64,000 nucleotides of DNA from Candidatus Electrothrix communis (GTDB lineage Bacteria > Desulfobacterota > Desulfobulbia > Desulfobulbales > Desulfobulbaceae): positions 3,487,501 through 3,551,500 of the forward strand of contig CP130629.1 in assembly GCA_030644725.1 (NCBI GenBank), written 5' to 3'. Of this stretch, positions 14,010 to 33,982 are shown piece after piece (positions within the stretch are counted from its first letter, which is position 1; each line of letters starts with the position of its first letter). A model generated the notes under the pieces. It was not told where the DNA came from and did not search any database. It worked only from the letters and a program-made list of their open reading frames with translations. The translations under genes and the position numbers were made by a program.

Positions 14010-14052
14010 TGCCGGAGTTGTGGTTCAGGAAAAGAGTTCCTGGTATCAATCA

Positions 14053-14859: not shown

Positions 14860-14966
14860 ATCACCATCTCCTTGAATGAATTTTTATTTTTAATCGGACG
14901 GTGAAGGTTAAAACATAATGCAGCAGAAATGAAATCGCCCGTTCGGGGGATATAGGCGTTTTCTTG

Positions 14967-15746: not shown

Positions 15747-15800
15747 TTTCCCGTTGTACTGTCTTTTGCAAGATTGTTTTGTGGCGACAACAGCGGCTCG

Positions 15801-16379: not shown

Positions 16380-16733
16380 ATGTGTGAAATTAAAGAAATC
16401 AAACTGGCTGACGGAACAAGTATTTTTGTCGAAATGGAGACAGTTGATTTTTCACCGGCATCAGAAAATGCTGTTCAACGCAATCTGCCTCCCGGTGCCG
16501 AAGAAGTCAATGCTGTTGAGACAGTGCTGGATACCATGAAGACCTTGAAGGGCACTTTAAGCTCTGTTTTCAATACAGTGCAGGATGCAGTGAAAGATAA
16601 ATCTCCCGACGAATGGGGCGTAGAACTTAACATTGGTTTTAAAGGCAAGGTCAATCCGATCCCGGTGATTGTAAGCGGTGAATCCAGCGTGGCAATTAAA
16701 GTCCACGCTCATTGGAAGAAAAAGCAAGGCTGA
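16380..16733 (+). CDS. Trypco1 (CU044_2847-like) protein of a vWA-MoxR-VMAP conflict system
   Basis: At 117 residues, the protein has the pattern of the Trypsin-co-occurring domain 1. It starts with a beta-rich head (EIKLADGTSIFVEME), has a helical middle (VETVLDTMKTLKGTLSSVFNTV), and ends with the typical WGVELNIGFKGKVNPIPVIVSG ... VAIKVHAHWK, quoted in parts. These domains accompany trypsin-like proteases in conflict systems and probably act as adaptors or regulators. GAGGGG lies 10 nt before the ATG. The protease gene starts 10 bp after its stop, which supports a single operon running to 24434. Confidence 0.85.
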   Translation: MCEIKEIKLADGTSIFVEMETVDFSPASENAVQRNLPPGAEEVNAVETVLDTMKTLKGTLSSVFNTVQDAVKDKSPDEWGVELNIGFKGKVNPIPVIVSGESSVAIKVHAHWKKKQG

Positions 16734-16743
16734 TTTAACAGTA

Positions 16744-18480: not shown

Positions 18481-18485
18481 TAACC

Positions 18486-19505
18486 ATGAATAACGACAAA
18501 TTAACTTTTCAATTACCTAGCACCCCGCCGCCGCCGTGGCGTGAATTCAAAAATCGCATGAATCGTCAAGTACGTGCGGAGAACTATCAGCCCAGCGAGC
18601 GGGAAGTTAAGTTAATCAATGCGGCCCTGATGTTACGCCGTCCTCTCTTGATTGAGGGTCCGCCGGGTGTGGGGAAATCCTCATTGGCGCATGCGGCGGC
18701 GTATAAATTGGGCTTGGACGATGTCCTTCAATGGCCCATAACTTCGAAGTCTACTCGACAGGACGGCTTATACAGTTACGACGCCTTGGCACGTCTGCAA
18801 GAAGCGGCATTGCTTGAAAAACGTACAGCACGGGAAGATGATTTCGATCAAAATAATTACCAGGAAGCACAAAAGAAGATTGAAGATATCGGGCGATATA
18901 TCAGCCTCGGCCCATTAGGCACGGCATTATTACACTCCACCTCAGAGAAACCCTGTGTCGTGTTGATTGACGAACTGGATAAAAGCGATATTGATCTCCC
19001 GAACGACCTGCTTCACCTGTTTGAAGAAGGAGAGTTTCAAATCCCGGAGATAGCCCGTCTGCCGGACAGCGATCACGCTGATAAAATTATGGTCTGCGCC
19101 CATAACAGCACAGAAAAATTACCTGTTGAACGTGACGGAATAGTCCGATGTCACGCATTTCCTTTGGTGATCATGACGAGCAACGGGGAACGCGAATTTC
19201 CTGCGGCTTTTTTACGTCGCTGCTTACGTCTTAAAATATCCCAGCCAACAGAAGAAGAACTTCGACGCATCATACACGGCCATTTAAATATGAACGTTCC
19301 GGGCACAAGCAATGAAGATCTTTCTGAGGAACAGCAGGCAACACAGAAGTTGTTGGCTGACTTTCTTGATAAGAGAGGAGAACAGTCCCGGTTAGCCACA
19401 GGTCAACTCTTAGATGCCATGTATTTATTCAATTCAGGAATAGAGTTATCCGAAGAAGAAAATAAGTATCTATACCAGGCTGTTTTTGAGGCGTTATCTG
19501 AGTAA
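18486..19505 (+). CDS. MoxR-type AAA+ ATPase of the conflict system
   Basis: At 339 residues, it has Walker A IEGPPGVGKSSL (about residues 58-68), Walker B CVVLIDELDKSD, sensor 1 VIMTSNGEREFPAAFLRRC, and a helical lid. MoxR ATPases act as chaperones with vWA proteins, remodelling client complexes. A GTG at 18477 is an alternative start overlapping the protease stop; the ATG at 18486 is preferred. It lies 87 bp upstream of the vWA-STAND gene, its expected partner. The proline-rich N-terminus (PSTPPPPWREF) is usual for this VMAP-associated branch. Confidence 0.9.
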   Translation: MNNDKLTFQLPSTPPPPWREFKNRMNRQVRAENYQPSEREVKLINAALMLRRPLLIEGPPGVGKSSLAHAAAYKLGLDDVLQWPITSKSTRQDGLYSYDALARLQEAALLEKRTAREDDFDQNNYQEAQKKIEDIGRYISLGPLGTALLHSTSEKPCVVLIDELDKSDIDLPNDLLHLFEEGEFQIPEIARLPDSDHADKIMVCAHNSTEKLPVERDGIVRCHAFPLVIMTSNGEREFPAAFLRRCLRLKISQPTEEELRRIIHGHLNMNVPGTSNEDLSEEQQATQKLLADFLDKRGEQSRLATGQLLDAMYLFNSGIELSEEENKYLYQAVFEALSE

Positions 19506-19592
19506 GTGCTTACTTACCGAATGTTGCAATCCGATGAGCTGGAGATTTGATATTCTGTAATTTTAAACTGTTATGACTGACAGAGACATCCT

Positions 19593-22500
19593 GTGATAAA
19601 CGAAACAGTACCAAAACTCCTTACAGCTCTCCAATCTGTCTGCCCTGATGAAAACGCAGATGCGGAGGCCGTTGCCGACTGGTTATGGCTTGCCGCCCAC
19701 AGTATACCGTCCAAAAAGGGGCCGCATGATGAGTCATCGCCCCGAAAATCTGACAGTCTTGATCCTGAACAAGTCGATCAATCAGATTCCGGCCAACAGC
19801 CCGAATCTGAGGCAACGAACAAAACGAGCGATAGCGATCATCTTGAAGACACCACAAGTCACTCCGAGGGTGATCCTAAACCAAATCAATCTGACAACCT
19901 CCAGAAATCATCAACCCCGCTCTATTCCGGAGGTCAAGGAACGGGGACAGGCAGCGGCCTTCCTCTCCGTGTTCCCGGCGGACGTGCTCTGCCTCATTCA
20001 CTGGCTCTTGTCCGCGCTCTGCGTCCTTTAAAACAACAGATCGAAACGAACGATTCCTGGGTTATAGATGAAGAGGCGACAGTCCGCAGGATTGCCGATA
20101 CCGGTATCTGGACCCCTGTACTCAAAGCCAACAGACAGCGTTGGTTGGAACTGGCATTGGTGCTTGATGAATCGCCTTCCATGCGTTTATGGCACAATAC
20201 CATTAAAGAATTACGTGCATTGCTCGTTCAACTCGGTGCATTTCGTGACATTCGCATCTGGAGGTTGAAAACATCAGGAAAAGACCAACGGGTTGATTTG
20301 CACTCAGGGGCAGGAGAAGCACCATGCCATTTTCGAGGACTCGTGAATACAGCTCGTCCTCGCTTGATAGTAATTGTTAGCGATTTTATTTCTCCTGCCT
20401 GGCAGGGGGAAGAGCTGATTGAATGGCTGAATGTTTGGGGGCGTGAACATCCTGTAAATTTTATTCAACTGCTGCCGCAAAGATTGTGGCGGCAAAGTCG
20501 TCTGCGTACCGCCCGGCTGTTGAAAGTCACCAACCCTGCTTCCGAGACACCTAATTCTCGTTTTCACGTCCATCAGCCTGCTCTGCCTTGGGCAGAACCT
20601 GCTACGGAAAAGGCAATACCCTTTCCTTTGATTTCGTTAGAGCCCGACCTTCTCGCCGATTGGGCACATTTTATTGTTGGAAACAAAAAGATCGAATTGC
20701 CTGCCTTTCAGCTGCAATCAAGAGAACAGACAAGCGTTGAGCTTCCAAAAAATCAATCAGAGGAGAATGAACGTCTGCAACAATTCCGGGCTGTAGCCAC
20801 TCCAACAGCATATAAATTGGCATGTTTTCTTGCTGCCGCACCGCTCATGTTGCCTGTTATGCGTTTGGTTCAGCGTGTATTGGTTCCGGAATCTGGACAG
20901 TCGCATTTGGCAGAGTTCTTTTTAAGCGGTCTGATCAAGCGGGTGAATACTGATGAAGAAATTATCGACCCCGACAAGATAGTATATGATTTTTTATCGG
21001 ATAATTTACGCAATACGCTTTTAGAATCCGGCTTGATTACTGATGCAGTACGGGTACAGGAAGAGATTTCGAGATTTATCAATGAACATTATAATGATGC
21101 ATTTTCTTTTCAGGCGATAATAAGGGATCCGAAAAGTACGGGGGACGTTAGAGTATCTGAAGAGTTAAGACCATTTGCTAAAGTGACGGGGTCTGTGCTG
21201 GAACAGTTGGGAGGGAAATATACCAAAGCTGCGCAAGAAATACGTATTGTTAAAGCAGCTGGAATTGTGCCCTTAAAACCTCTTTTAGGGTCGATCTTTT
21301 ATCTGCCGCAGGCCCCCACCCGCTTCACCGGAAGAATCCCAGAGCTGAATCAGCTGGCTGACCTACTGCTTCGCTCAGAAGAAGAGAAGACCGTAGCCAT
21401 TGTCGGGATAACCGGTCAAGGCGGCATCGGCAAGTCCGCTTTGGCATTTCATTTTGCAAAGGAATACCGAGACAAGTTCCCTGACGGGATCATCGCTGAA
21501 CGGGTGAACGGCAAGGATGCGGACACAATTGCTCGTATCTTTGCCCGGATTGGCGGGAAAATGATCGCCGAGGACGATGTCCGGCCCGGAGTGGCGATCA
21601 TGCAGGAAGCTTTTGCCCATCGGCGGATGTTGCTCATCTTTGACAATGCCGAGACAGCAGACATCCTTACTCTGCATCCAGGCGGGAAATGCGCAGTGAT
21701 CATTACCACCCGCGACCGTGACCTGCTAGGCCGAATTGATGTTCCCAAGGAGCAATGCGTTGATCTGCCAGTTCTGCCGGATCAGGATGCTTGGAACCTG
21801 CTGGCCTGCTCTGTTGATCGCAGTCGCCTTGAGGATGAAGCGGAGGCTGTAGCCCGTATTCTGGAGCTGGTGGGCAATCTGCCCCTAGCAGTAGAGATCG
21901 TCGGTAAAACCCTGCAAAAACGATTGCGGCGCAACTCCTCCTTTTCACTGACCGCCTATGCCGAGGCATTAGACTTGGAACGACTTAGCCTGCCCCGTGA
22001 TGTCCATCTGAATGTGCGTATCTGTTTCAATCAGAGTATCTGGCTGCTTGAAGATGACGGCAGGGATGATCTAATTAGTGCCTTTGCCCGGCTTTCTGTT
22101 TGCCAGCAGAACGGTTTTTCTCTGCATACGGCGATGGCCGTTTTGGAGACAGAAGATGAATACGCTACGGAAGAAAATATGTTTGAGTTGCTTGACCTGT
22201 CTTTTCTCAGTCAGCAGGATACAGGCCGTTTTATTTATCATCCACTGATGTACGAATTCGCCAAAGAAATCGCCAAAGAACGTAACTTGGTTGCAGTGGC
22301 GAGGCAGAATCATACAAGCTATTTTATTGACCTGCTTGAGAATCGAAAGGTTGAAGAATTGGTGGCGGAGTTAGATGATATTTTGCTTGTTGCCAAACGG
22401 ATGGCGGAAAGTGGAGATGATAGCTATATCAATTTTTCTTTAAATCTAAAAAAATTGCTTACCCATTTGAGCAACTGGTTTCAATTAGCCAGATTGTACA

Positions 22501-24434
22501 TTCAACAGGCTGAATTCAATATATTGCAGGGTGAATTACACAACGCAGAAGAGACGCTTCTAGCTGCACAAGATATTGTTCGAAAAATCGAGCCACTGAG
22601 GGGACAGCAGCACACGGATGTTGTGCGACTGAATACGCTGGGTCGAGTATACCAGCTGCTCGGAAAATTTGACCACGCAGTGCGAGTTTTCCTACAGAGC
22701 CGTAAGATTACCGAACAGCTAGAGGACGAGCGAGGATTGGCGATGGTATTGAACTCTCTGGGCGGAGTCTATCAGCGGCAAGGGAAGTTCGACGACGCAA
22801 TGCAGTCCTTCCGGCAGAGCCTCAAAATTGAAGAAGAGCTAGATAATCAGCGCGGTCAGGCGATGGTGCTGAATTCTCTAGGTGGGGTCTATCAGCGGCA
22901 GGGAATATTTGACGGTGCGGTGCAGGCTTTTCAGCAGAGTTGTGATATTTCCGAACGGTTGGGGGATGAGCGCAGCTTGGCAATGGTGTTGAACTCCTTG
23001 GGCGGAGTCTATCAGCGGCAGGGGAAGTTCGACGACGCAATGCAGTCCTTCCGGCAGAGCCTCAAAATTGAAGAAGAGCTAGATAATCAGCGCGGTCAGG
23101 CGATGGTGCTGAATTCTCTAGGTGGGGTCTATCAGCGGCAGGGAATATTTGACGGTGCGGTGCAGGCTTTTCAGCAGAGTTGTGATATTTCCGAACGGTT
23201 GGGGGATGAGCGCAGCTTGGCAATGGTGTTGAACTCCTTGGGCGGAGTCTATCAGCGGCAGGGGAAGTTCGACGACGCAGTGCAGTCCTTCCGGCAGAGC
23301 TATGCTATTTCCGAACAGCTTGAGGATGAACGCAGCTTGGCGATGGTGCTGAACTCGCTGGGCGGAGTCTATCAGCGGCAGGGGAAGTTCGACGACGCAG
23401 TGCAGTCCTTCCGGCAGGGCTATGATATTTCCGAACGGCTGGAGGACGAACACAGTATGTCGATGATTCTGAATTCTTTGGGCGGGATCTATCAGCGGCA
23501 GAAAATGTTTGATGATGCAATTCAAGCTTTCCGACAAAGCTTTAATATCGCTGTGCAAATGAAGGATGAGCGCTGTCAGGCAATAAGCTTAAATTCTTTG
23601 GGTGGGGTCTATCAGCGACAGGGGAAGTTTAAGGAAACGGTGGAGGTATTCTGGCAGAGTTATGAAATCTTCTCCCTGTTGGAAGATAAGCGGGGGGTGG
23701 CGATGGTCTCGAATTCCCTTGGCGAAGTGTATCAGCGGCAGGGAAAGCTTGACAATGCAGTTCAGGCATTCCAAGAAAGTGCAGCTATTGGAAAAAAGAT
23801 AGACGATAAACGCCTTTTGGCAATGGTGCTGAACTCCTTAGGCGGGATCTATCAGCGACAGGGTGAGTTCGATGATGCGGTTCGAGCATTCCAGGAAAGC
23901 TATGATATCGGCCAAGTCTTGGGTGACGAACGGCATCTGGCAATAGTCACCAGCTCTTGGGGGCGTGTCCTGTTAAGTCAAAATAAACCCGAAGAAGCCC
24001 TTGTCCTCTTGGAGCAGTGCTTTGCCATTGACGAAAAGATAAAGAACCGACGCGGACTGGGCATGGTTACGCCACTGCTCTGTCATACCCTACGCCGACT
24101 CAGACGCACCAGTGAAGCCGCTGCTTTCTGCAGACGCGCCCTAAAGATCACGCCCAAAAATAACCGACTCCTCGTCCTGCAAAAAAGCTTGGAAGAATGC
24201 CTCCTGCTCACTGGCACGGTCAAGTTTATCCGTCCCTCCCGAGATGGCGATCATTATTTCGGCTACATTACCATGGATGATGGCGGTAACGATGTACGTT
24301 TTGATTCGCATTTTGTAGACATCAGCGGTTTGGACACCGGCACACGGGTTGCGGTCGAAGTAAATATAAATCGAGAGAGCGTCCGGGTCGCTCAAAAGGT
24401 GGAAATAATCAATGAACAGCCCCAGGCCCAATAA
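19593..24434 (+). CDS. vWA - NB-ARC - TPR - cold-shock-like giant protein (conflict-system core)
   Basis: The 1613-residue protein has, in order: a short helical head; an acidic linker (residues about 45-115); a SAV_2336-like vWA domain (about 185-365) with MIDAS LDESPSM at 191-197 and IVSDFISPAW; and a winged-helix-like region (about 400-500). An NB-ARC ATPase domain follows (about 575-800) with Walker A GQGGIGKSA (608-616), Walker B LLIFDNAE (680-687), TTRDRD and GNLPLAVEIVG. About thirteen 40-residue TPRs (about 1005-1520) lead to a cold-shock-like OB domain (about 1540-1605, FGYITMDDGGNDVRFDSHFV). It is probably the NTP-dependent sensor/switch, with TPRs for ligand or target binding. Two TPRs are exact duplicates. 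The final residues (NEQPQAQ) run into an antisense vapC remnant. Confidence 0.9.
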   Translation: MINETVPKLLTALQSVCPDENADAEAVADWLWLAAHSIPSKKGPHDESSPRKSDSLDPEQVDQSDSGQQPESEATNKTSDSDHLEDTTSHSEGDPKPNQSDNLQKSSTPLYSGGQGTGTGSGLPLRVPGGRALPHSLALVRALRPLKQQIETNDSWVIDEEATVRRIADTGIWTPVLKANRQRWLELALVLDESPSMRLWHNTIKELRALLVQLGAFRDIRIWRLKTSGKDQRVDLHSGAGEAPCHFRGLVNTARPRLIVIVSDFISPAWQGEELIEWLNVWGREHPVNFIQLLPQRLWRQSRLRTARLLKVTNPASETPNSRFHVHQPALPWAEPATEKAIPFPLISLEPDLLADWAHFIVGNKKIELPAFQLQSREQTSVELPKNQSEENERLQQFRAVATPTAYKLACFLAAAPLMLPVMRLVQRVLVPESGQSHLAEFFLSGLIKRVNTDEEIIDPDKIVYDFLSDNLRNTLLESGLITDAVRVQEEISRFINEHYNDAFSFQAIIRDPKSTGDVRVSEELRPFAKVTGSVLEQLGGKYTKAAQEIRIVKAAGIVPLKPLLGSIFYLPQAPTRFTGRIPELNQLADLLLRSEEEKTVAIVGITGQGGIGKSALAFHFAKEYRDKFPDGIIAERVNGKDADTIARIFARIGGKMIAEDDVRPGVAIMQEAFAHRRMLLIFDNAETADILTLHPGGKCAVIITTRDRDLLGRIDVPKEQCVDLPVLPDQDAWNLLACSVDRSRLEDEAEAVARILELVGNLPLAVEIVGKTLQKRLRRNSSFSLTAYAEALDLERLSLPRDVHLNVRICFNQSIWLLEDDGRDDLISAFARLSVCQQNGFSLHTAMAVLETEDEYATEENMFELLDLSFLSQQDTGRFIYHPLMYEFAKEIAKERNLVAVARQNHTSYFIDLLENRKVEELVAELDDILLVAKRMAESGDDSYINFSLNLKKLLTHLSNWFQLARLYIQQAEFNILQGELHNAEETLLAAQDIVRKIEPLRGQQHTDVVRLNTLGRVYQLLGKFDHAVRVFLQSRKITEQLEDERGLAMVLNSLGGVYQRQGKFDDAMQSFRQSLKIEEELDNQRGQAMVLNSLGGVYQRQGIFDGAVQAFQQSCDISERLGDERSLAMVLNSLGGVYQRQGKFDDAMQSFRQSLKIEEELDNQRGQAMVLNSLGGVYQRQGIFDGAVQAFQQSCDISERLGDERSLAMVLNSLGGVYQRQGKFDDAVQSFRQSYAISEQLEDERSLAMVLNSLGGVYQRQGKFDDAVQSFRQGYDISERLEDEHSMSMILNSLGGIYQRQKMFDDAIQAFRQSFNIAVQMKDERCQAISLNSLGGVYQRQGKFKETVEVFWQSYEIFSLLEDKRGVAMVSNSLGEVYQRQGKLDNAVQAFQESAAIGKKIDDKRLLAMVLNSLGGIYQRQGEFDDAVRAFQESYDIGQVLGDERHLAIVTSSWGRVLLSQNKPEEALVLLEQCFAIDEKIKNRRGLGMVTPLLCHTLRRLRRTSEAAAFCRRALKITPKNNRLLVLQKSLEECLLLTGTVKFIRPSRDGDHYFGYITMDDGGNDVRFDSHFVDISGLDTGTRVAVEVNINRESVRVAQKVEIINEQPQAQ
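22782..23279 (+). repeat. Exact 240-bp tandem duplication within the TPR region
   Basis: Positions 22782-23039 are identical to 23022-23279, an offset of 240 bp. The duplication covers two TPRs of 40 residues each. Neighbouring TPR units share the 120-bp period but differ at the base level, so this copy is recent. It sits inside the gene at 19593-24434 and keeps the frame. Confidence 0.95.
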
Positions 24435-24566
24435 CCTGTAAACCCAGCTGCTCCTCCATAGGCACAAAATCCTGATCATCATGCAGCAGGGCCACATCAT
24501 TTTCAATGCAGTACGTCCCGATCAACACATCAATCGTTTTTTTCACCGTAATTCCCTGCTTCCCAT
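24407..24566 (-). pseudogene. vapC 3'-end remnant, duplicate of the PIN toxin gene at 25969
   Basis: About 160 bp match the 3' part of the vapC gene at 25969-26376 with roughly ten differences. The shared words include GAACAGCCCCAGGCCCAA and CACAAAATCCTGATCATCAT. The remnant encodes only the C-terminal third (TIDVLIGTYC ... HDDQDFVPMEEQLGLQV region). It begins inside the last codons of the giant vWA gene and fades out before 24600. It records a duplication spanning the Fic gene. Confidence 0.85.
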
Positions 24567-24655
24567 CCCCGCCGCCATGCAGCCCTGATAAGCAAGGTGC
24601 TGTCCAAGTTGTTAATCATCGGTTTTTTACTCTCTTACCGAAGAAAAACCCGAAT

Positions 24656-25768
24656 TTATAATTGCTCAATGTTATCAATTAGATCATATCCGGTACTACG
24701 CCCGCCTCCCGGAAGTTTATACAGAATTTCTTTGTCGATTAAATCCTGAATATCCCTGGTTGCCGTATCCTGTGAGCATTTAGCGATCTTTGCCCATTTC
24801 GAGGTTGTCAGTTTTCCCTTGAATCCGTCAAGCAGTCGGTTGAGCAATTTTTTCTGCCGTTCATTTTTTATCTTTGCAGCATTACGCATCCAAAAGCTAT
24901 GCTTGCGCAGTATTTTTTCCAGAACAGTTTCGGAAGCCTCTATGGCATGCAGCAGGCATTGCAGAAACCATTCCAGCCAATCAGTGATATCGATTTTTCC
25001 TCGTTGTGTTCGTTCCAAAATGTCATAATACTGCTCCCTCTCTTTTCTTATTTGAGCGGACATGCTGTAGAAGCGATACGACTGATTATCAGACCGGGCC
25101 AGCAGCATATCGCTGATTGCTCGGGCTATCCTACCGTTACCGTCTTCAAACGGATGAAGGGTGACGAACCAAAGATGGCCTATAGCGGATTTTAGCACTG
25201 GATCAATAGGTTGACGCTCATTGATCCAGTTGAGAAAACGTTTCATCTCTGTTTCAAGCAGATCGGCGGCAGGAGCCTCAAAATGTACTTTTTCTTTCCC
25301 CACAGGGCCGGAAACAACCTGCATTGATCCGGAAGAATCGTCTCTCCATCTGCCGACAAGCACCTTATACATTCCGCTGTAGCCGGACGGGAACAGAGCA
25401 TTATGCCAGCCGAAAAGTCGCCCCTTATCCAGCGGAATGTTGAAATTTTCCGTGGCATCAACCATCATTTCAACCACACCGTCCACATTTCTGTCGGAAT
25501 GCACCAAGCCTGAAATGTCCAGCCCCAATCGGCGAGCCACTGATGACCGTACCTGATCCGCATTTAACAGCTCACCTTCTATTTCCGTTGATTTCAGGAC
25601 GTCCTGCGTTATGATTTCAAGGTTTGCCTGATTTCTCAGCTCAAAGCCCAAGGCTCCCATTCTGCCGACAACCTGTCCCTGCATATTTCTCACTGTTGTC
25701 AGCAGGGTCAGAATTTTTTCTGTATTCCATGTGAAATGCGGCCAATCAGGTTGTTCGTGGATGTACAT
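24656..25768 (-). CDS. Fic family AMP-transferase (DUF4172-Fic-HTH)
   Basis: At 370 residues, it has the Fic core motif HPFEDGNGRIAR (His about 205), which usually transfers AMP to a target hydroxyl. An N-terminal DUF4172-like domain contains the inhibitory motif STEIEGE, matching [S/T]xxxE[G/N], so activity is self-restrained. The C-terminus is a winged-helix-like DNA-binding region (TSKWAKIAKCSQDTATRDIQDL). The start at 25768 is preferred over 25783 because GGAG lies 9 nt upstream. It stands alone between the vapC remnant and the intact vapBC pair, in an island of toxin-type genes. Confidence 0.92.
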   Translation of the reverse strand: MYIHEQPDWPHFTWNTEKILTLLTTVRNMQGQVVGRMGALGFELRNQANLEIITQDVLKSTEIEGELLNADQVRSSVARRLGLDISGLVHSDRNVDGVVEMMVDATENFNIPLDKGRLFGWHNALFPSGYSGMYKVLVGRWRDDSSGSMQVVSGPVGKEKVHFEAPAADLLETEMKRFLNWINERQPIDPVLKSAIGHLWFVTLHPFEDGNGRIARAISDMLLARSDNQSYRFYSMSAQIRKEREQYYDILERTQRGKIDITDWLEWFLQCLLHAIEASETVLEKILRKHSFWMRNAAKIKNERQKKLLNRLLDGFKGKLTTSKWAKIAKCSQDTATRDIQDLIDKEILYKLPGGGRSTGYDLIDNIEQL

Positions 25769-25968
25769 TTTTATTCTCCGCATAATTTGCGGTAAATAGA
25801 GCGATTAATCTCCGCACAATCAATAATTGAAGGGCGCTGTCAAAAAGATTATTCTGCTAACTTACGGTATCCATTATTTTTCACCAATAGCCCACCCAAC
25901 CCCGCCAGGCGTACAGATGAGAGAAGACAGCGAGTGAAGAGTGTGTTTAATTTACAAAGGGGAAATAA

Positions 25969-26376
25969 TCAATGAACAGCCCCAGGCCCAACAACCTGCA
26001 ACCCCAGCTGCTCTTCCATAGGCACAAAATCCTGATCATCATGTAGCAGGTACACATCATTTGCAATGCAGTACGTACCGATCAACACATCAATCGTCTT
26101 CCTCACCGTAATCCCCTTCTTCCGCAGCGCCCGATAATTCATCGCCGCGGCAACCGCATTGGAATGACCGCCCAATGCAACGAAATCAAGGGCCTTGAGA
26201 AATTCCTTTGCCTTTCTGAAATCACTATCATTACGGAACCCCTGCAAAACGTCCGTCAATATCAGATCACCAATCAGGATTGGCTCGTTCCCTAACAGTT
26301 CATCAAGCAGGTCTGTCTGCCAATTGATTCGACCGTTGAAATAGGCAATCCAAACCGATGAATCAACAAGGATCAT
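25969..26376 (-). CDS. vapC: VapC-type PIN-domain toxin
   Basis: This 135-residue PIN-domain ribonuclease has the conserved acidic residues in LVDSSVWIAYF (Asp4), the internal DVLQGFRND, and the C-terminal TIDVLIGTYC and LLHDDQDF. VapC toxins cleave tRNA or rRNA when not bound by their antitoxin. Its start overlaps the upstream antitoxin stop by 4 bp, the usual vapBC arrangement. The 3' end exists in a second, broken copy at 24407-24566. Confidence 0.92.
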   Translation of the reverse strand: MILVDSSVWIAYFNGRINWQTDLLDELLGNEPILIGDLILTDVLQGFRNDSDFRKAKEFLKALDFVALGGHSNAVAAAMNYRALRKKGITVRKTIDVLIGTYCIANDVYLLHDDQDFVPMEEQLGLQVVGPGAVH

Positions 26377-26567
26377 TGATCCTGCCTCGTTTCATCCAGG
26401 TCTCCTTCCCAGCGCAACTTGCCACGGAGCGATTTGATTTTCTGCTGCTTTTTCATCCGAACCAATAATTTTAAGCCTTCTTCCACAACAGCCTTTTTGG
26501 TGTGTAAATTCGTTAAGTGCAGAGCTTCATTCATTAATCGGTCATTTATAACGATATTTGTTCTCAT
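26373..26567 (-). CDS. vapB: VapB-type antitoxin
   Basis: The 64-residue ribbon-helix-helix protein starts MRTNIVINDRLMNEALHL, followed by TKKAVVEEGLKLLVRMKKQQ, the pattern of the DUF2191/VapB antitoxins that cap PIN toxins. It should bind DNA with its N-terminal strand and neutralise the toxin with its C-terminus. It is the first gene of a two-gene operon with vapC (4-bp overlap). Confidence 0.88.
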   Translation of the reverse strand: MRTNIVINDRLMNEALHLTNLHTKKAVVEEGLKLLVRMKKQQKIKSLRGKLRWEGDLDETRQDQ

Positions 26568-26842
26568 GGTGGCCTCCCTGTGTATTAATTTAACTAATCA
26601 TACACACTTATTTCCGTACTTGAAAGCATTATTTTTTGTCCAGCTTGGCCCTTTGTCCGAATCAGATCGCATTTTTCCCACCGAACCCCGGCGTCCCCCA
26701 TCCAAGCCCGTAATCCTCTAAAAAACAACTTCTTAATTTCTTGCGTTTTCTGCTAGTTAATGATAAACTAAGTTCAAGAACTAAGTCCTCTCTTCACTGG
26801 ACGAGAATCCCGTACAAGAGAATAACAGGAGGAACACGAAGG

Positions 26843-27067
26843 ATGGAAACAGTCAATGTACATAAGGCGAAAACCCATTTATCCAGACTGCTGAACAGAG
26901 CCCATGCCGGGGAAGAGATCATTATCGCCAAGGCCGGTGTTCCCTATGCAAAGCTGGTTCCTGTTTCGCCGATAAAAGAAAGAAAACCAGGAATTGCGCA
27001 GGGAGCTGTGACAGATGCTTTTTTCGAGCCCTTACCTGATGAGGAATTGGAGGGCTGGGAAGAATGA
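26843..27067 (+). CDS. Phd/YefM-family antitoxin
   Basis: The 74-residue antitoxin starts METVNVHKAKTHLSRLLNRA, followed by EEIIIAKAGVPYAKLVPV, the standard Phd/YefM DNA-binding fold. The ATG at 26843 is chosen because AGGAGGA lies 9 nt upstream. The C-terminal part (FFEPLPDEELEGWEE) is acidic and should wrap the toxin. It overlaps the PIN toxin gene by 4 bp. Autoregulation is usual for the family; no operator could be clearly defined upstream. Confidence 0.9.
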   Translation: METVNVHKAKTHLSRLLNRAHAGEEIIIAKAGVPYAKLVPVSPIKERKPGIAQGAVTDAFFEPLPDEELEGWEE

Positions 27068-27453
27068 TTGTCCTGCTGGATACCCATATTTTTCTCTGGT
27101 GGCTTTTTGACGATCCCAAGTTGCCTGCGGGAATCAAGAAAAGCTTGCAACTGATCGACAATACCGTGCTGGTCAGCTCCGCATCGGTCTGGGAAATAAG
27201 CACAAAATTTCGTCTGGGTAAATTACCCGAAGCAGCCGCTGTTGCCGAGAATGTCCCGGTATGGATTGAAAAAGCAAGTTTTCAGGCACTTTCTGTCAGT
27301 CCACAACATGCCCAACTTGCCGGATCCTGGAAGATGGCACATCGAGATCCCTTTGACCGGATGCTTGCTGCTCAGGCAAAGCTGGAAGAAATCCCGCTGG
27401 CGACTGTGGATAAGGCCCTGTCGGATTTCCCGATTGAGATCATGAGGAAATAA
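27064..27453 (+). CDS. PIN-domain toxin paired with the Phd-type antitoxin
   Basis: This 129-residue PIN-domain ribonuclease of the type that carries DTHIFLWWLF at its N-terminus has the acidic residues Asp6, Glu in SVWEISTKF, Asp in HRDPFDRMLAAQA and Asp in LATVDKAL. It belongs to a different PIN branch from the VapC at 25969. It is translationally coupled to the antitoxin gene. Confidence 0.92.
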   Translation: MIVLLDTHIFLWWLFDDPKLPAGIKKSLQLIDNTVLVSSASVWEISTKFRLGKLPEAAAVAENVPVWIEKASFQALSVSPQHAQLAGSWKMAHRDPFDRMLAAQAKLEEIPLATVDKALSDFPIEIMRK

Positions 27454-27525
27454 GTTTGGTTCAAGGGTGCCCCCTGAGTATAAAAAGCGGATTATAGCGG
27501 AACCGAAAAAAATAAGGTGCAAAAA

Positions 27526-28509
27526 ATGTCATTCAATCAAGGCGAATTAATCTTATACCAAACCGATGACGGTCAAACCGGGCTTGATGTCCAGCTGAAG
27601 GATGAGACGGTCTGGCTGACGCAGGCCCAAATGCAGGAACTGTTCGGTCGAGAGCGGTCAGTCCTGACCAAGCATATCAACAACGTGTTCAAGGAAGGTG
27701 AATTGGACAAAGAACGAGTATGTGCAAAATTTGCACATACTGCCGCAGATGGAAAAACGTATCAGGTGTCTCACTACAACCTCGACGTTATCATCTCGGT
27801 GGGTTACCGGGTAAAATCAAAACGCGGTACCCAGTTCCGTATCTGGGCCACCACTCTTCTGAAACAGCATCTGGTCCAGGGATACACCTTGAATCAGCAG
27901 AGGCTGGCGGAAAAAGGTGTTGCCGAGATTCATCAGGTGCTGGATTTGTTGAGTAGTACCTTGGAAAACCACGAATTGGTCAATGATGATGGCAGGTTTG
28001 TGCTTACCCTTGTTAAAAATTACGCCCGCACTTGGCGATTGCTCTGGCAATATGATGAAGATTCTTTACCCGTCCCCAGAAAAGGAGAGAAAACCGGTAG
28101 GGTACCAGAACCTGAGGAAGTGCGAAAAGCTATTGATTCGCTGCGCCTGGATCTGCTGGAACGAGGAGAGGCGACAGATATTTTTGGCAATGAGCGGGGT
28201 CAGGGCTTGGAGGGAATCCTCGGGGCTGTGCGGCAGAGTTTTGCCGGTCAGGATCTCTATCCGACTTTTGAGGAAAAGGCGGCCCATCTACTCTATTTTG
28301 TCATCAAAGATCATCCCTTTACAGATGGCAATAAACGGATTGGCTCATTTCTTTTTCTCCTGTTTTTACAGCTCAACCGGCATTGCTCGAAATTTGACGA
28401 CAAGGCCCTGGTCGCCCTGACCCTGCTCATCGCCTCCAGCGCACCGGAACAGAAAGACGTGCTCATTCGTTTGGTGGTTAACCTGATCAGCGAAACAACG
28501 GCGGAATGA
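27526..28509 (+). CDS. RhuM-Fic/DOC fusion protein
   Basis: The N-terminal half (residues 1-170) is a RhuM virulence-protein domain (ETVWLTQAQMQELFGRERSV, GYRVKSKRGTQFRIWAT). The C-terminal half is a Fic/DOC domain with HPFTDGNKRIGSFLFL. The core His and the GNKR variant resemble DOC-type enzymes, which may phosphorylate rather than adenylylate. The ATG at 27526 is preferred over GTG 27517 because of an AAGG close upstream. It follows the PIN toxin by 72 bp in the same direction. Its target is unknown. Confidence 0.9.
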   Translation: MSFNQGELILYQTDDGQTGLDVQLKDETVWLTQAQMQELFGRERSVLTKHINNVFKEGELDKERVCAKFAHTAADGKTYQVSHYNLDVIISVGYRVKSKRGTQFRIWATTLLKQHLVQGYTLNQQRLAEKGVAEIHQVLDLLSSTLENHELVNDDGRFVLTLVKNYARTWRLLWQYDEDSLPVPRKGEKTGRVPEPEEVRKAIDSLRLDLLERGEATDIFGNERGQGLEGILGAVRQSFAGQDLYPTFEEKAAHLLYFVIKDHPFTDGNKRIGSFLFLLFLQLNRHCSKFDDKALVALTLLIASSAPEQKDVLIRLVVNLISETTAE

Positions 28510-28535
28510 TGAATCCCTTCGGGACATCTCGTCCC

Positions 28536-28722
28536 AACCTAAAAATACACGAACCAGCGCAAATAATAATGATCCGCTGCGGTTCCGAAGGTATCCTCTT
28601 CATCCCCGTAATACAGGAAAGCCCCCAACCCCAGGGTCATTTCATCGCTTAAGCTGTATTCCAGAGAAGGAGCAACAAAGCCGGACGAGTCCTCAAGGGA
28701 GGTGATGCCGAGCAGGCCGCAT
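28536..28722 (-). pseudogene. Duplicated C-terminal fragment of the outer-membrane protein at 33011
   Basis: About 180 bp are almost the same as the 3' end of the gene at 33011-33982. The encoded 60 residues match its last 62 with only a few changes (TSLEDSSGFVAPSLEYSLSD, YYLRWFVYF). Identity stops sharply at the GCCGCA word near 28722. No upstream part is present, so it cannot be a working barrel. It lies just past the stop of the peptidase-barrel gene. Confidence 0.88.
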
Positions 28723-28746
28723 AACAAAACAACAGAAACAACATTG

Positions 28747-31659
28747 CTAATTCCTGAACAGCTTCAGGTAAATGAAAAATTCATTATACGAATCGTTGAA
28801 TTCATCCCAAGCATGAGCAAACCCCAGGGACAGAGTCGCATCGACAGTGTAAAAATTTGTCAAATACCAGTTGTTCTGCATCCCGATATTCCAATATCGG
28901 GCGGATTCATTTTCCAGCTCTGTATAAAGCTGCTGATGAAATATGGCGAGATCGGTACGTTTTACATAACTGTCTCCGAACCGCCAACCGATTTTCATTG
29001 AGGGGAATAGATTTTCCACTGTCAGTTTGGCATATGCGTCAGCGACTTGGCTGTTCTCACCGAGTCCTGTAAAATTTTCAGGCAGCCGGTAGCGTCGGAC
29101 TGTCTGCTTTTCTAAAAACTGGCCTCCGAATCCTTCAAAATAAAACAGACTTTCTCCAAGAGGGTCGCCCCAGCTCTTTCCCGTTGCCGTCTGAATGCGG
29201 AAGATATTATGGGGAAGAAAAAGGGGAGTGAACCAGTTGACTTCTCCAGACAGCACAGCGGCATCGATATCAAATGCATCGACCGAGTGGATTTTCTGAA
29301 CCTGTCCGCTCAGCCGGTATCCTTTTTCATCATCAACACTACCGATGCTCATTCGTGAATTCTTCAGGCGGAACCCTGTGCCGAAACTGAATGTCTCCTC
29401 GCTGCTTTCCCCGCCGAAATCATCATATTTCCATTTATTCCAGCCGACTGAAAAGGTCTGCTCAAGGGTTTTCGGGCGATCGTATATCCAGAATTTTTTA
29501 TATTCCGAGAAAAAGCCGTTATGGACCCTCCGTACATCACGTTGATTCGCCAGGTCATAAAACGAAGTCGGCAGATGTTGGAAGCCGATCTCCAAGGTGT
29601 TCCGATAAGCATAGGTGCTACTTAGATGCATATTGTTTTCAGAGTCAGGGCCTTGGGACCAGCCGCTCTGTAACGACAGGCGATGCTCGCTCAGAGGATC
29701 CTGCATTTCCAGATAGAGCCCGAAAGCGGTCTGCTGACCATACGAGGCCACTACAGGAATCAGGGTGTTTTTTCGGAGGTGTAGCAGGCCGTGATACACT
29801 TCTCCATACGGCTGTTGCCCGGCTGGATCGGGGACAGCCGGTTTCAGGCGCCATTCACGCAGTTCCGGATGATTTTCAATCACCTGCTGTCCACGGTAGC
29901 GGATCGCAGCTAGTCCTTCCACCGGTCTGTCGGGAATAATAACAGGTTGAAATCCCTTACCGGTAAACTGATAGGCAAAAATACGTTCCTGATCCAGAAC
30001 CAAGGGATGAAACAGACCGGTGAGCGTGTTGCTCAGTACCTCCACTCTGTCGTTGCCGATCCGCTGACGAAAAATATTGGAAACACCGCTGGTATAGGCG
30101 TTCCAGTACACAATGTCCCCGTCCACCCCCCAGGAAGGATGCTCCGGGCTGCCTTGCCGGGTCAGAACGGTGTAGAGTAGTCTTTTTTCCTTTAGCAACT
30201 TTTCCAGATCAATAAGGATGATTTCTTGTTCGCCGCTGCCCCTGTGAAGGGTCGCCAGCATGGAATCACCTTCGGAATGAATCTGCAGCTGCCCTAGTAC
30301 GGTATTCACAGGCAGTGAAATCAGAGGAATAAATTTCCTGTATGGAAAAGGGGATACAACCAGAACCGAGCGGGCCTGACGGATCTGTATTCCCCACAGA
30401 TCCCGGTTACGCGGATTGACAGTCAGGCTGCCTATCCGGGCATCTCTGAACAGTCGTTTACTTTCCTGGGTGTGCATGTCCACCGCCCACAAATCACGGT
30501 ACCCTCGGTCGTTATGGGTGGTGAAAAAGAAAAACTGCTGCTGGTCAAAGGCTGTGGATGCGACCTGAATCAGCGAAGGAGTTATCAGGGTATGAATTTC
30601 CTTCAGCTGCCCGTCTGCTAAATTCAACTGTTCTATGGCGGTAAATTTATCGGGCCGGAGGCTTGCCAGCAGAACGGAATGATCGGTGTTTTTATACGCT
30701 CTGGTCACCCAACCCAGCGGTTCGGTGAGCGGCTGCACCGGAGTCAGGGGATATTTTCGGATCCTCTTAAGATTTTCGTGTTGAAATTCTTCTTCAGCAT
30801 GAAGAAACTGATTCCAGGCGGTTTCCAGGTCAGTTCCGAAGACCTGCTGGAATTTTGTCTGGAAATGCAGATGCTCCTGGTCTGGGGCAAGCCGTACCCA
30901 GTCCAGCAATGCGGACAGATCGTAACGGAGCACGAGATGGGTCATAAAACGGGCTCCGTACAGATAAGCTGTGCTTCCCAGCAGGAACGAGTCATCGTTG
31001 AAATCCACATCCTCCCAGCTCTCTCCGGGCGTATTTTCATATGCCAAGGTGCGAAAATACATTTCATCGTAACTGCCTAACACGCGACCGTATCCGCCGT
31101 TGAGCCAGGTTTCCATAAACACCGCAATTCCCTCCTGATACCATGTCGGAGTAAAACGGCCTTTATTAGTGAGCAAGGAAAAGGGAAGAGTCAGGGGGCT
31201 GTCTTTGACCGGCATGACTTTACCGAGAATGCTGCGCAGCCGTTTTTTGCTTCGGGATGCCTGATCCGCTGTGATGATATGAACCAGTTCATGGCTGAAG
31301 AGCCACTGAAACTGGTTATCGAACCGACCTGATTCATATTCTCCCTGATCGAACGGAGCAATATCCAGAGTGACTGTATTATGAGGCAGGGCAGTGGCAC
31401 TCCCGCCGCCGACATCTCGATGATCCTGAATGATGACTGTAATCGGTTCGGTGGGTTGATAACTGAAGATTTCCTGGAGACTATATAAGGCGGTTTCTGC
31501 ACCTATGATAATCCGGGGAAGTAAGGGCTGATGCTGTTCCCGGTAGATGAAATGGAAATGTTCTGTGCTGAAGTGGTGCCGTTCAGCGGCCTGGGTGAGG
31601 GAAGTGAAGAGAAAAAGGAGAGGTAGGAGAACCGTTAGGCCGGATAAAATTGATGTCAT
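28747..31659 (-). CDS. Secreted gluzincin peptidase - propeller - outer-membrane barrel fusion
   Basis: This 970-residue protein has a signal peptide (LSGLTVLLPLLFLFTSLTQA). A peptidase-MA-like domain follows, with HELVHIITA as the zinc motif and a downstream glutamate in WYQEGIAVFMET (residues about 120-195). Residues about 300-620 show beta-propeller-like repeats (VTRAYKNTDHSVLLASL, GSPEHPSWGVDGDIVYW) as in TolB. The last 300 residues look like an outer-membrane beta-barrel ending in FNEFFIYLKLFRN-like strands (FFIYLKLFRN). It probably sits in the outer membrane with the protease in the periplasm or at the surface. Substrates are unknown. Confidence 0.82.
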   Translation of the reverse strand: MTSILSGLTVLLPLLFLFTSLTQAAERHHFSTEHFHFIYREQHQPLLPRIIIGAETALYSLQEIFSYQPTEPITVIIQDHRDVGGGSATALPHNTVTLDIAPFDQGEYESGRFDNQFQWLFSHELVHIITADQASRSKKRLRSILGKVMPVKDSPLTLPFSLLTNKGRFTPTWYQEGIAVFMETWLNGGYGRVLGSYDEMYFRTLAYENTPGESWEDVDFNDDSFLLGSTAYLYGARFMTHLVLRYDLSALLDWVRLAPDQEHLHFQTKFQQVFGTDLETAWNQFLHAEEEFQHENLKRIRKYPLTPVQPLTEPLGWVTRAYKNTDHSVLLASLRPDKFTAIEQLNLADGQLKEIHTLITPSLIQVASTAFDQQQFFFFTTHNDRGYRDLWAVDMHTQESKRLFRDARIGSLTVNPRNRDLWGIQIRQARSVLVVSPFPYRKFIPLISLPVNTVLGQLQIHSEGDSMLATLHRGSGEQEIILIDLEKLLKEKRLLYTVLTRQGSPEHPSWGVDGDIVYWNAYTSGVSNIFRQRIGNDRVEVLSNTLTGLFHPLVLDQERIFAYQFTGKGFQPVIIPDRPVEGLAAIRYRGQQVIENHPELREWRLKPAVPDPAGQQPYGEVYHGLLHLRKNTLIPVVASYGQQTAFGLYLEMQDPLSEHRLSLQSGWSQGPDSENNMHLSSTYAYRNTLEIGFQHLPTSFYDLANQRDVRRVHNGFFSEYKKFWIYDRPKTLEQTFSVGWNKWKYDDFGGESSEETFSFGTGFRLKNSRMSIGSVDDEKGYRLSGQVQKIHSVDAFDIDAAVLSGEVNWFTPLFLPHNIFRIQTATGKSWGDPLGESLFYFEGFGGQFLEKQTVRRYRLPENFTGLGENSQVADAYAKLTVENLFPSMKIGWRFGDSYVKRTDLAIFHQQLYTELENESARYWNIGMQNNWYLTNFYTVDATLSLGFAHAWDEFNDSYNEFFIYLKLFRN

Positions 31660-31774
31660 GTGATGCCCGGCACAGAGGATAGCGCATTGGAGTCATATTA
31701 TTGTGGGAAACAACACATTGTGGAGCTTCTTATGAGAGCTTTGAATGTTTAACCGGCAAAGCCGTTGAAATCTG

Positions 31775-31799
31775 ACCACCCCCAGAGGGGGTGGTTTTC
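31775..31799 (+). terminator. GC-rich hairpin followed by TTTTCT
   Basis: ACCACCCCC (31775-31783) pairs perfectly with GGGGGTGGT (31787-31795) across a 3-nt loop and is followed by TTTTCT. No plus-strand gene lies upstream, so it may belong to a repeat element rather than end a transcript; on the minus strand no T-run follows. Confidence 0.35.
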
Positions 31800-31817
31800 T
31801 CTCACGAAGCCTCCGGC

Positions 31818-32142
31818 TCTATACCTTAAATGTTGCTCGAAATCCTAGCTGAAAAGAATGAAAGGTCGCAATAATAACAATTTAAGTTGACATTAAAATG
31901 ACACTCACCTTAAATCATTGACTTTTTCAAATAACTACCGTCAGTTGCTTGAAAATACAAACAAAATTCAGAATCGTTTTTCCAAGCTCAAAATAAAACA
32001 ATTAATGTCAAATCATATAGTTATATATTTTACAAGCTAAAATTATCTCCCTGCGGTTCGCAGTGAAAAAATATTACTTCAATATATCTATTTTATTAAA
32101 AAAATATGGATTTTTGGTTAATTTCGAGCAACATTTAAGTAT
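31818..32142. mobile_element. MITE-like element with about 20-bp terminal inverted repeats
   Basis: CTTAAATGTTGCTCGAAAT at about 31824-31842 recurs in inverted orientation as ATTTCGAGCAACATTTAAG at about 32119-32137. Flanking TATAC words extend the match with one gap. The 320-bp interior is AT-rich, carries only a short hypothetical frame and encodes no transposase. It sits next to the 3' end of the AEVQELG-repeat gene, whose stop is at 32144. Confidence 0.6.
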
Positions 32143-32143
32143 A

Positions 32144-32671
32144 CTAAAACGATGGGGGAGCGATGCGCCTGCCAAGCTCCTGCACCTCAGCTCTGTCCTT
32201 TTTTATGACTGTTTTGTCACCCAAGTCCTGCACCTCAGCACTGCTTCTCATTGGATGAACTTGGCCTCCACCCAAGTCCTGCACCTCTGCTCTGTCCTTT
32301 GTTGAAAGTACCCTACCAAGCTCCTGCACTTCAGCTTTATCCCTTGCATCACCACTTATCGAGACCCCAAGTTCTTGCACCTCGGCACTATTCCTCACCA
32401 TTGGTGCAATCCCGTTGCCAAGCTCCTGCACCTCTGCTCTCTCTCTTACTTGAGCTGGAAGGGTCATACTCCCCCCTAGTTCTTGTACCTCAGCACTGCT
32501 GCCTGCCATCATGTGCTGCCCGGAAACATCAGCACGGCCTTTAACAGCAGCTACGGTCAACTCAACGGATGCCAACGGCGCAGTATAACGGTGTGCTGTT
32601 TCAATCTCTCCGGCAACGGCGGATCCAAAAATCAGAGAACATGCGGCGACGAATAATAAAGTCTTTTTCAT
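32144..32671 (-). CDS. Secreted protein with seven AEVQ(E/D)LG repeats
   Basis: The 175-residue protein starts at 32671, where GAGGAGGAGT lies 6 nt upstream. The signal peptide MKKTLLFVAACSLIFGSAVA is unambiguous. The mature part has seven copies of the heptapeptide AEVQELG or AEVQDLG, each preceded by a charged or small residue and spaced 17-25 residues apart with unrelated linkers. No known repeat family is recognised. The even spacing suggests a repeated binding or assembly site in the periplasm or on the surface. The gene is free-standing between a MITE-like element and the porin gene. Confidence 0.88.
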   Translation of the reverse strand: MKKTLLFVAACSLIFGSAVAGEIETAHRYTAPLASVELTVAAVKGRADVSGQHMMAGSSAEVQELGGSMTLPAQVRERAEVQELGNGIAPMVRNSAEVQELGVSISGDARDKAEVQELGRVLSTKDRAEVQDLGGGQVHPMRSSAEVQDLGDKTVIKKDRAEVQELGRRIAPPSF

Positions 32672-33010
32672 GATACTCCTCCTCAAAAATGGTTTACAGA
32701 TAAACATCCTTTCCTTCCTGTATTAAACATTAATTTTCAATAGGAAATTTGTCAACAGGTAAGAAGAATAAAACAGCAGACCGCTGTCGTTTTCCTTCTC
32801 TCCTCTGCCGACCGGGAGCTGTGCGTTCTCCCCCTTCTGTGCAATGCTCTAAGAAGAGAAACCTGGAAGAACTTGCCAGGACAAAGCCCCCCAGTGACCC
32901 TGAGCACCGCACCTTTCCTTTCTTCACAGCCTGAATTTCCTTTTTCGTCTGCCGGATAATACTCGTTTTGTATCATCTGGATATCCTGATGACCCAACGG
33001 GGTGTACAGA
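32672..33010. other. Gene-free stretch of about 340 bp
   Basis: Only short shadow frames are present. The segment holds the promoter side of the AEVQELG-repeat gene and the 3' flank of the outer-membrane protein gene at 33011. No terminator hairpin is evident. Confidence 0.5.
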
Positions 33011-33982
33011 TTAAAAATACACAAACCAACGCAAATAGTAGTGATCCGCCGCGCTTCCGAATATATCCTCTTCATCCCCGTAATACAGGAAAGCCCCCAA
33101 CCCCAGGGTCATTTCATCGCTTAAGCTGTATTCCAGAGAAGGAGCAACAAAGCCGGACGAGTCCTCAAGGGAGGTGACGCCGAGCAGGCCGCAGGCCCAG
33201 AGCATGGCGGGCTGATAGCTCAGCATGCCGCCCAGATAATCACCCTCGTCCTCATCTGAAAATTTATATTCGCCAAGTAGGGTCAGTGAATTGGCAAAGC
33301 CGTACTCGGCCCCGACAATAAACTCGGTGTGCCGCTCGCCGCTGGAACGGTCATGAAAACTACCGCCCTCGCTCCGTAACTCAATCCCGGTGTCCGGGAG
33401 ACGGCCTGCCAGCTCCCAGCCGATGATGTCTTGATCATTGTCCTCATCCACCAGCCCGATCAGAGCCACATCGACATATTCGAGATACCCCTTGATCCGC
33501 ATTGCTGCTTTATCCCGAGCCAGCGTAACATCCATGTTGGATAGCTCAGTAAAGGCGTACTCATAGCGGAGGGATTCCGTGCCGATCCGTTCGTCCGGCT
33601 CGACCGCCTCAGGATCCACCGGGTTGAACACATCAACGGGATTCCAGATTCGACCGACTCCCAACGGGATACGCTGTTTGCCTGCGGACCAGAAATGCTT
33701 CAGCCCCTTATACTGGAGATAGGCCCGATAGACCGAGGTTTTGTTCCCCAGACTGTCCGGGGTCGCGGTGTATCGGGTTTTATTGTCAACAATCACCCTG
33801 CCGACAATATCGGAATACTCTTTATGCTCCAGGGTAAGCTCCGCCCGTAACCGGTTGAAGTCGGTAAAATGATGCAGTTCATCGTAGCCAGCGATATTGG
33901 TGTTCTCCAGGCCGAGTTCCGGGCTGATCCCCAGCATCCCGAACGCCAGCATTTTGTTCAGCTTGTTACTGAATGCGCTCAT
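33011..33982 (-). CDS. Outer-membrane beta-barrel protein of an ABC export operon
   Basis: At 323 residues, the protein is dominated by alternating amphipathic strands (LRAELTLEHKEYSDIVGRVI, SVYRAYLQYKGLKHFWSAGK, and the C-terminal HYYLRWFVYF with terminal Phe). It is similar in style to DUF1302 or alginate-porin-like barrels. No strong signal peptide is seen at the annotated start, so the N-terminus may be lost or mis-assigned. It overlaps the ATPase gene by 17 bp and is the last gene of the LolA/FtsX/FtsX/LolD operon. Its 3' end was copied to 28536-28722. Confidence 0.78.
   Translation of the reverse strand: MSAFSNKLNKMLAFGMLGISPELGLENTNIAGYDELHHFTDFNRLRAELTLEHKEYSDIVGRVIVDNKTRYTATPDSLGNKTSVYRAYLQYKGLKHFWSAGKQRIPLGVGRIWNPVDVFNPVDPEAVEPDERIGTESLRYEYAFTELSNMDVTLARDKAAMRIKGYLEYVDVALIGLVDEDNDQDIIGWELAGRLPDTGIELRSEGGSFHDRSSGERHTEFIVGAEYGFANSLTLLGEYKFSDEDEGDYLGGMLSYQPAMLWACGLLGVTSLEDSSGFVAPSLEYSLSDEMTLGLGAFLYYGDEEDIFGSAADHYYLRWFVYF

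What the first reader, a model, noticed from the sequence alone, without database searches (positions are those of the whole stretch)
32144..32671. Secreted protein with seven AEVQ(E/D)LG heptapeptides
The heptapeptide is almost invariant while the spacers are unrelated, implying selection on the short motif itself. No known repeat family fits. If the host is a filamentous or cable bacterium, a periplasmic or envelope repeat protein with regularly spaced motifs is of special interest.
Basis: seen in the sequence. Interest (0 to 1): 0.65.

Follow-up and report, generated by a model that had tools for sequence, protein, structure and literature searches.

The report
Orphan exported protein, seven repeated motifs
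A small, probably exported protein of a cable bacterium carries nearly the same seven-residue motif seven times, kept by selection on the protein, but no relative was found, its job is unknown, and it is unlikely to be part of the shared electron-conducting fibres.

Summary
ORF 32671-32144 (-) encodes 175 aa with a strong Shine-Dalgarno, a Sec-type signal peptide (by eye) and seven AEVQ[ED]LG copies spaced 15-19 residues. The motif is held at protein level: pS 0.71 against pN 0.05 inside it. Spacers are not wholly unrelated: K/R at -3, a polar residue at -2 and a hydrophobic residue at +9/+10 recur. No credible relative was found in its own genome, in samples of its genus, family, order and phylum, in 84,980 species genomes, viruses, plasmids, phages, PDB, Pfam or NCBIfam. 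The host genus is Ca. Electrothrix: a sister genome has exactly the published E. scaldis length. The gene lies in ~22 kb absent from sister genome G003, in a ~4.3-kb block between 182-bp direct repeats, and has atypical codon usage. Present in one of eight Electrothrix genomes and without cysteine in the mature protein, it is a poor candidate for the conserved conductive fibre. Best reading: an exported, largely disordered scaffold presenting seven copies of one short docking motif (inferred, 40%). Rivals: repeated-peptide precursor, modification-site array, small repeat fold, relic. Function, expression and localisation are untested.

The parts
32144..32671 (-). CDS, 175 aa, probably exported protein with seven AEVQ[ED]LG motifs
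32676..32684 (-). Shine-Dalgarno-like GAGGAGGAG, 4 nt before the ATG
   Evidence: upstream sequence printed
32612..32671 (-). Sec-type signal peptide MKKTLLFVAACSLIFGSAVA, likely cut after AVA
   Evidence: read by eye from the translation; no predictor run
32474..32494 (-). motif 1, AEVQELG
32417..32437 (-). motif 2, AEVQELG
32366..32386 (-). motif 3, AEVQELG
32315..32335 (-). motif 4, AEVQELG
32270..32290 (-). motif 5, AEVQDLG
32219..32239 (-). motif 6, AEVQDLG (shares the codons GAC TTG GGT with motif 5)
32171..32191 (-). motif 7, AEVQELG
31825..32139 (.). 315-bp stretch bounded by perfect 19-bp inverted repeats (31825-31843 / 32121-32139), just downstream of the CDS; single copy in the genome
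28747..31659 (-). 970-aa protein: HELVH...E metallopeptidase-like motif (by eye, conserved in 2 relatives), TolB-like propeller stretch, C-terminal part unassigned; no match in the 7 other Electrothrix genomes held
28540..28721 (.). 182-bp direct repeat, truncated copy of the 3' end of the 323-aa gene
33012..33193 (.). 182-bp direct repeat inside the intact 323-aa gene (95% identical to the other copy)
10954..33011 (.). ~22-kb variable region; in sister genome G003 the two flanks lie 35 bp apart

Best explanation
The gene makes an exported protein (Sec signal peptide; mature part 155 aa, pI 5.1, no Cys, no Trp) that is largely disordered and presents seven copies of one short, probably helical docking motif, [KR]-x-x-AEVQ[ED]LG. 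Shown here: the gene structure, the seven motifs, protein-level constraint on the motif with freer spacers, and the accessory location. Inferred: export, disorder, helical motif, and that each motif binds the same partner (a periplasmic, envelope or extracellular protein or surface), so that the protein works as a multivalent scaffold or cross-linker. It was probably brought in by horizontal transfer from a donor not in the collections (inferred).
For: pS 0.71 against pN 0.05 in the 7 motif codons over 21 pairs of copies; outside, pN is 0.41 at positions -3..-1 and 0.73-0.74 at -7..-4 and +7..+8. Codon identity between copies is about what independent codon choice at neighbouring genes' usage would give for A, Q, L and G, so the copies look old and are held by the peptide, not by the DNA. 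Spacing varies by 4 residues, which tethered motifs tolerate and a tight solenoid would not. AlphaFold2 single-sequence model: mean pLDDT 47.8, helices fully over motifs 2, 4 and 7 and partly over 3 and 5, none over 1 and 6 (low confidence). Motifs carry net -14, spacers +9. Atypical codons: AGA/AGG 9 of 12 Arg against 20 of 154 in eight chromosomal genes of the window, p = 7e-6; CTG 1 of 14 Leu against 143 of 305, p = 0.004.
Against: No partner, no relative, no expression data. Disorder rests on composition and on a low-confidence model without an alignment, which would look the same for a real fold with no relatives. The basic residue at -3 and the hydrophobic residue at +9/+10 could equally mark a cleavage site or a small fold. 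V and E codons are more alike between copies than expected (0.71 against 0.30 and 0.71 against 0.53), and the spacers' DNA, last three codons included, also aligns better than shuffled (1 of 3000 reach it), so common descent is still visible. Counts over 21 pairs of seven copies are not independent. The co-located 970-aa gene has ordinary codon usage (AGA/AGG 10 of 58, p = 0.51; CTG 52 of 109, p = 0.91), so the block was not imported whole from one odd-codon donor, or codon bias is a poor clue here.
Confidence: 0.4

Rival explanations
1. Peptide precursor: an exported polyprotein cut near the basic residues before each AEVQ[ED]LG to release seven near-identical peptides (signal, antimicrobial or modified peptide), in the manner of multi-core precursors.
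For: Signal peptide, near-identical cores, weakly constrained linkers, K/R at -3 in 6 of 7 units and K/R at -1 in 4 of 7; a metallopeptidase-like gene lies 484 bp downstream on the same strand.
Against: Position -1 is R, S or K and position +7 is free, so neither end of the core has an invariant cut site. No modifying-enzyme family among the 7 neighbouring proteins scanned in Pfam (5 of them also in NCBIfam). The two genes are 484 bp apart with a 315-bp inverted-repeat stretch between, so an operon is unlikely.
Confidence: 0.17
2. Folded repeat domain: each 15-19-residue unit is a small helix-turn-strand module and the seven stack into a short solenoid.
For: V and L in the motif and a hydrophobic residue at +9/+10 in 7 of 7 units; low-confidence helices over several motifs.
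Against: Unit length varies from 15 to 19, spacer middles are indistinguishable from shuffled, hydrophobic content is low (GRAVY -0.41), and the model is not confident (mean pLDDT 47.8).
Confidence: 0.18
3. Array of modification or attachment sites: the invariant Q or acidic residues of each motif are substrates of an enzyme (for example glutamine-lysine cross-linking), giving a cross-linked envelope or matrix protein.
For: Invariant Q in 7 of 7 motifs, basic spacers, opposite charges of motifs and spacers.
Against: No modifying enzyme identified; nothing specific beyond composition.
Confidence: 0.1
4. Relic: a gene that came in with the block and is no longer expressed.
For: Found in a single genome, inside a block with a truncated gene copy; no expression data; no promoter-like site in front of it in a simple scan.
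Against: Intact ORF with signal peptide, strong Shine-Dalgarno and seven unbroken motifs; the promoter scan covers only sigma-70-type consensus.
Confidence: 0.1
5. DNA-level repeat: the 20-nt direct repeats are protein-binding or recombination sites and the ORF is incidental.
For: Direct-repeat finder sees 7 copies of 20 nt at 70-100% identity to its reference copy.
Against: Differences sit at synonymous positions of this one frame (74 synonymous against 18 non-synonymous differences over 21 pairs).
Confidence: 0.02

Closest known systems
Extracellular proteins with amino-acid tandem repeats in archaeal Borg elements (PMC9879509; start of abstract and passages seen)
   Same: Signal peptides and predicted disorder are enriched among those Borg proteins, Cys and Trp are almost absent from their repeats, and their repeats are read as resembling short linear motifs.
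   Different: Borg repeats are described as recently formed; here synonymous sites between copies are near saturation and the motifs are separated by freer spacers, so the array looks old.
Multi-core peptide precursors (plant and fungal RiPP precursors, mostly recalled; PMC11253845 and PMC12048977 seen only in a search listing)
   Same: Signal peptide followed by several near-identical short cores in variable linkers.
   Different: No invariant cut site at the core borders and no modifying enzyme recognised next to it; bacterial host.
Single AEVQ-LG-like stretches in unrelated proteins (alpha-catenin in the PDB; RsmG-like protein in G127)
   Same: Share the heptapeptide or most of it once.
   Different: One copy only; chance-level E-values (best 0.12).

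Membership tests
Any Pfam or NCBIfam family or repeat | Score above the curated cut-off | tested here: not met
   Pfam: 4 weak matches, best 16.3 bits against cut-off 27; NCBIfam: no match up to E 1
Any PADLOC defence family or PHROGs phage family | Significant HMM match | tested here: not met
   PADLOC none up to E 1; PHROGs best E 0.036, no stretch passing on its own
Component of the conductive fibre of cable bacteria | Conserved across cable bacteria (expectation stated in PMC11976967, passage) | tested here: not met
   No credible relative in 72 other genomes of the family, 7 of them of the same genus (best E 0.036, an unrelated frame); the 7 are 69-97% complete
Component of the conductive fibre of cable bacteria | Cysteines or haem motifs for metal or haem binding in the mature protein (criterion is mine, from general knowledge) | tested here: not met
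   0 Cys, 3 His in 155 residues
Multi-core peptide precursor | Repeated core peptides in variable linkers after a leader or signal peptide | tested here: met
Multi-core peptide precursor | Conserved cleavage sites at the core borders | tested here: not met
   -1 is S/R/S/K/R/S/R; +7 is G/N/V/R/G/D/R; K/R at -3 in 6 of 7 is the nearest thing
Multi-core peptide precursor | Modifying enzyme or dedicated exporter encoded nearby | tested here: inconclusive
   An ABC ATPase/permease pair (33966-35902) is near and scores, below cut-off, with LolD/LolCE and also with bacteriocin- and darobactin-export models; it matches sister genomes G003, G005 and G007, which lack the motif protein. No modifying enzyme among 7 neighbours scanned
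Borg-type recent tandem repeat | Recent, near-identical DNA repeat units | tested here: not met
   pS 0.71 between motif copies
Multivalent short-linear-motif scaffold (works like) | Repeated conserved motif in a disordered, unconstrained linker | tested here: inconclusive
   Motif constraint met; disorder only suggested
Multivalent short-linear-motif scaffold (works like) | Known binding partner | not testable with these tools
   no partner data

The most novel reading that the evidence does not exclude
A bacterial exported 'polyprotein' that yields seven copies of one near-identical short peptide, like animal neuropeptide precursors, used by a multicellular filamentous bacterium as a signal or antagonist, possibly released by the metallopeptidase-like propeller protein encoded in the same block.
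Probability: 0.07. Interest if true: 0.75.

Novelty: new variant of a known kind. Interest (0 to 1): 0.33.

Why it matters
It is a clean example of selection on a seven-residue motif in a probably exported protein with no detectable relatives, in a group of bacteria whose envelope is of wide interest. It matters mainly as a caution and a lead: the gene looks accessory and species-restricted, so it should rank low as a fibre candidate, but the motif array is a ready-made bait for finding a periplasmic or extracellular binding partner.

Tried and rejected
Conductive-fibre or core-envelope role: ranked low because no relative was found in the genus, because of the location in a variable block and the lack of Cys and Trp. 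Lipoprotein: the only Cys, in VAAC at residue 11, comes too early for a lipobox (judged by eye), so a plain signal peptide is preferred.

Homologue hunt, all negative: own genome (only itself at E <= 10); 37 genomes, own included (13 with a match at E <= 10 including itself, best other 0.038); 84,980-species collection by protein (410 pattern stretches, none confirmed) and by motif pair (0; the pattern demands GAG as the Glu codon of the first motif, and records near the window's genome may be left out, so it had no positive control there); viral contigs (39 stretches, none confirmed; 0); plasmids (8 records, best E 0.3); phages (none); PDB by sequence (none up to E 10). Repeat-pair profile in 395 genomes of the phylum (2 at E <= 0.01, itself and G212 at 0.0085) and in 73 of the family (17 at E <= 1 including itself, best other G542 at 0.036). 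On checking, the G212 match is a single AEVQDL in a frame antisense to what looks like a sensor kinase, and the G542 match a single RVQELG in what looks like a phosphoribosyltransferase (by eye). In one search I had read the wrong strand for these two minus-strand loci; one search mends that.

Neighbourhoods of the 970-aa relatives in G050, G027 and G068 (L047-L050) and of the 323-aa gene in four sister genomes (L043-L046): among ORFs of 60 aa or more, 5-mers repeated three times or more were only homopolymer runs. The 315-bp inverted-repeat stretch is not a multi-copy element: one copy in the genome; one arm-like site with 2 mismatches in G002 among 8 genus genomes. Rfam: two matches below the gathering scores, one of them inside the CDS. 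The predicted structure was too weak for a fold search, so none was run. Papers: the strings AEVQELG and AEVQDLG occur in 0 papers of the 5.39-million library. Which Electrothrix species the window comes from was not settled.

Full report
What is there. The reading frame 32671-32144 on the minus strand runs from ATG to stop and encodes 175 residues. It is preceded by GAGGAGGAG four bases before the ATG. The first 20 residues read as a Sec signal peptide with an AVA cleavage site (by eye; no predictor run). The mature part is 155 residues, pI 5.1, with no Cys or Trp. AEVQ[ED]LG occurs seven times with start-to-start distances of 19, 17, 17, 15, 17 and 16 residues.

Is it more than chance. Yes. 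The back-translated motif occurs seven times in the 4,845,585-base genome, all here, and in 1 of the other 145 genomes of the order sample, once. In 2000 shuffles of the mature protein no 4-mer occurs more than twice; AEVQ occurs seven times. Over the 21 pairs of motif copies, differences are 74 synonymous against 18 non-synonymous (pS 0.71, pN 0.05); pN is 0.41 at positions -3..-1 and 0.73-0.74 at -7..-4 and +7..+8. For A, Q, L and G the codon identity between copies is close to that of independent codon choice at the usage of four neighbouring genes; E (0.71 against 0.53) and above all V (0.71 against 0.30) codons are more alike than that. So the peptide rather than the DNA is conserved, and the copies are not a fresh tandem expansion, although common descent is still visible: motifs 5 and 6 share GAC TTG GGT, and the spacers' DNA, last three codons included, aligns better than shuffled (1 of 3000).

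The unit is longer than seven. K/R at -3 (6 of 7), D/E/S/N at -2 (7 of 7) and a hydrophobic residue at +9 or +10 (7 of 7) are rare in shuffled spacers (3, 4 and 61 of 20000), although these tests were chosen after seeing the sequence. All six full spacers together align better than shuffled ones (0 of 5000 reach the score), but without their last three residues they do not (2651 of 5000).

Host. The genus search holds 8 genomes, own included. One of them, G007, has contig length 5,089,909, the published size of Ca. Electrothrix scaldis GW3-3, 5 089 909 bp (PMC10926707, passages). The window thus belongs to a Ca. Electrothrix species; which one is not settled.

Context. The three genes for permease, ABC ATPase and 323-aa protein (33011-35902) match G003, G005 and G007 at about 79% DNA identity; the 323-aa protein has a relative in 5 of the 7 other genus genomes. 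In G003 the DNA matching window 10953 and window 33012 lies 35 bp apart, whereas the window has about 22 kb there; G005 and G007 share a gene of that stretch (11835-12662, a methyltransferase by eye), so the region is variable rather than a single insertion. Inside it, two 182-bp copies of the 323-aa gene's 3' end, 95% identical, bound a ~4.3-kb block with the heptapeptide gene and a 970-aa gene. No credible relative of the first, and no match to the second at E <= 0.001, was found in the other seven genus genomes. The heptapeptide gene has atypical codon use (AGA/AGG 9 of 12 Arg against 20 of 154 in eight chromosomal genes of the window, p = 7e-6; CTG 1 of 14 Leu against 143 of 305, p = 0.004); the 970-aa gene does not. 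The 970-aa protein has distant relatives in 3 of the other 95 genomes of the order sample, an HExxH and a downstream Glu shared with the two relatives aligned, and a TolB-like propeller stretch.

Relatives of the heptapeptide protein. None credible in any collection tried, with the limits given under Tried and rejected.

How it probably works. The contrast between a nearly invariant motif and freer spacers of variable length is the usual mark of tethered short motifs (general knowledge). The single-sequence AlphaFold2 model is poor (mean pLDDT 47.8, pTM 0.14); it puts helices at 73-88, 95-100, 109-131 and 160-170, fully over motifs 2, 4 and 7, partly over 3 and 5, not over 1 and 6. I therefore favour an exported multivalent scaffold, at 40%. 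A small repeat fold (18%), a peptide precursor (17%), a modification-site array (10%) and an unexpressed relic (10%) remain open.

Verdict. Interest is moderate to low until expression or a relative is found.

Noticed in passing
10954-33011: About 22 kb of variable DNA between flanks that are 35 bp apart in G003; it holds a RhuM-Fic gene (27517-28509) and, by eye, Fic-like (24656-25783) and PIN-like (25969-26376) genes.
   Followed up: partly
28747-31659: 970-aa HELVH...E protein with a TolB-like propeller stretch, no match in the 7 other Electrothrix genomes held; 24-35% identical to proteins in two other families of the order.
   Followed up: partly
31825-32139: 315-bp stretch with perfect 19-bp inverted ends, single copy; perhaps a lone mobile-element relic or a regulatory stretch.
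   Followed up: partly
51201-51794: Degenerate 42-63-bp tandem repeats open in both strands (197-aa and 146-aa ORFs).
   Followed up: no
22671-23747: 120-bp repeats (240/360-bp higher order) in a 1613-aa protein with TPR-like units (by eye).
   Followed up: no
38192-38298: About 100 bp that matches two places some 2.4 kb apart in G003 (L043:5498-5606 and 3057-3144), a dispersed repeat of the genus.
   Followed up: no
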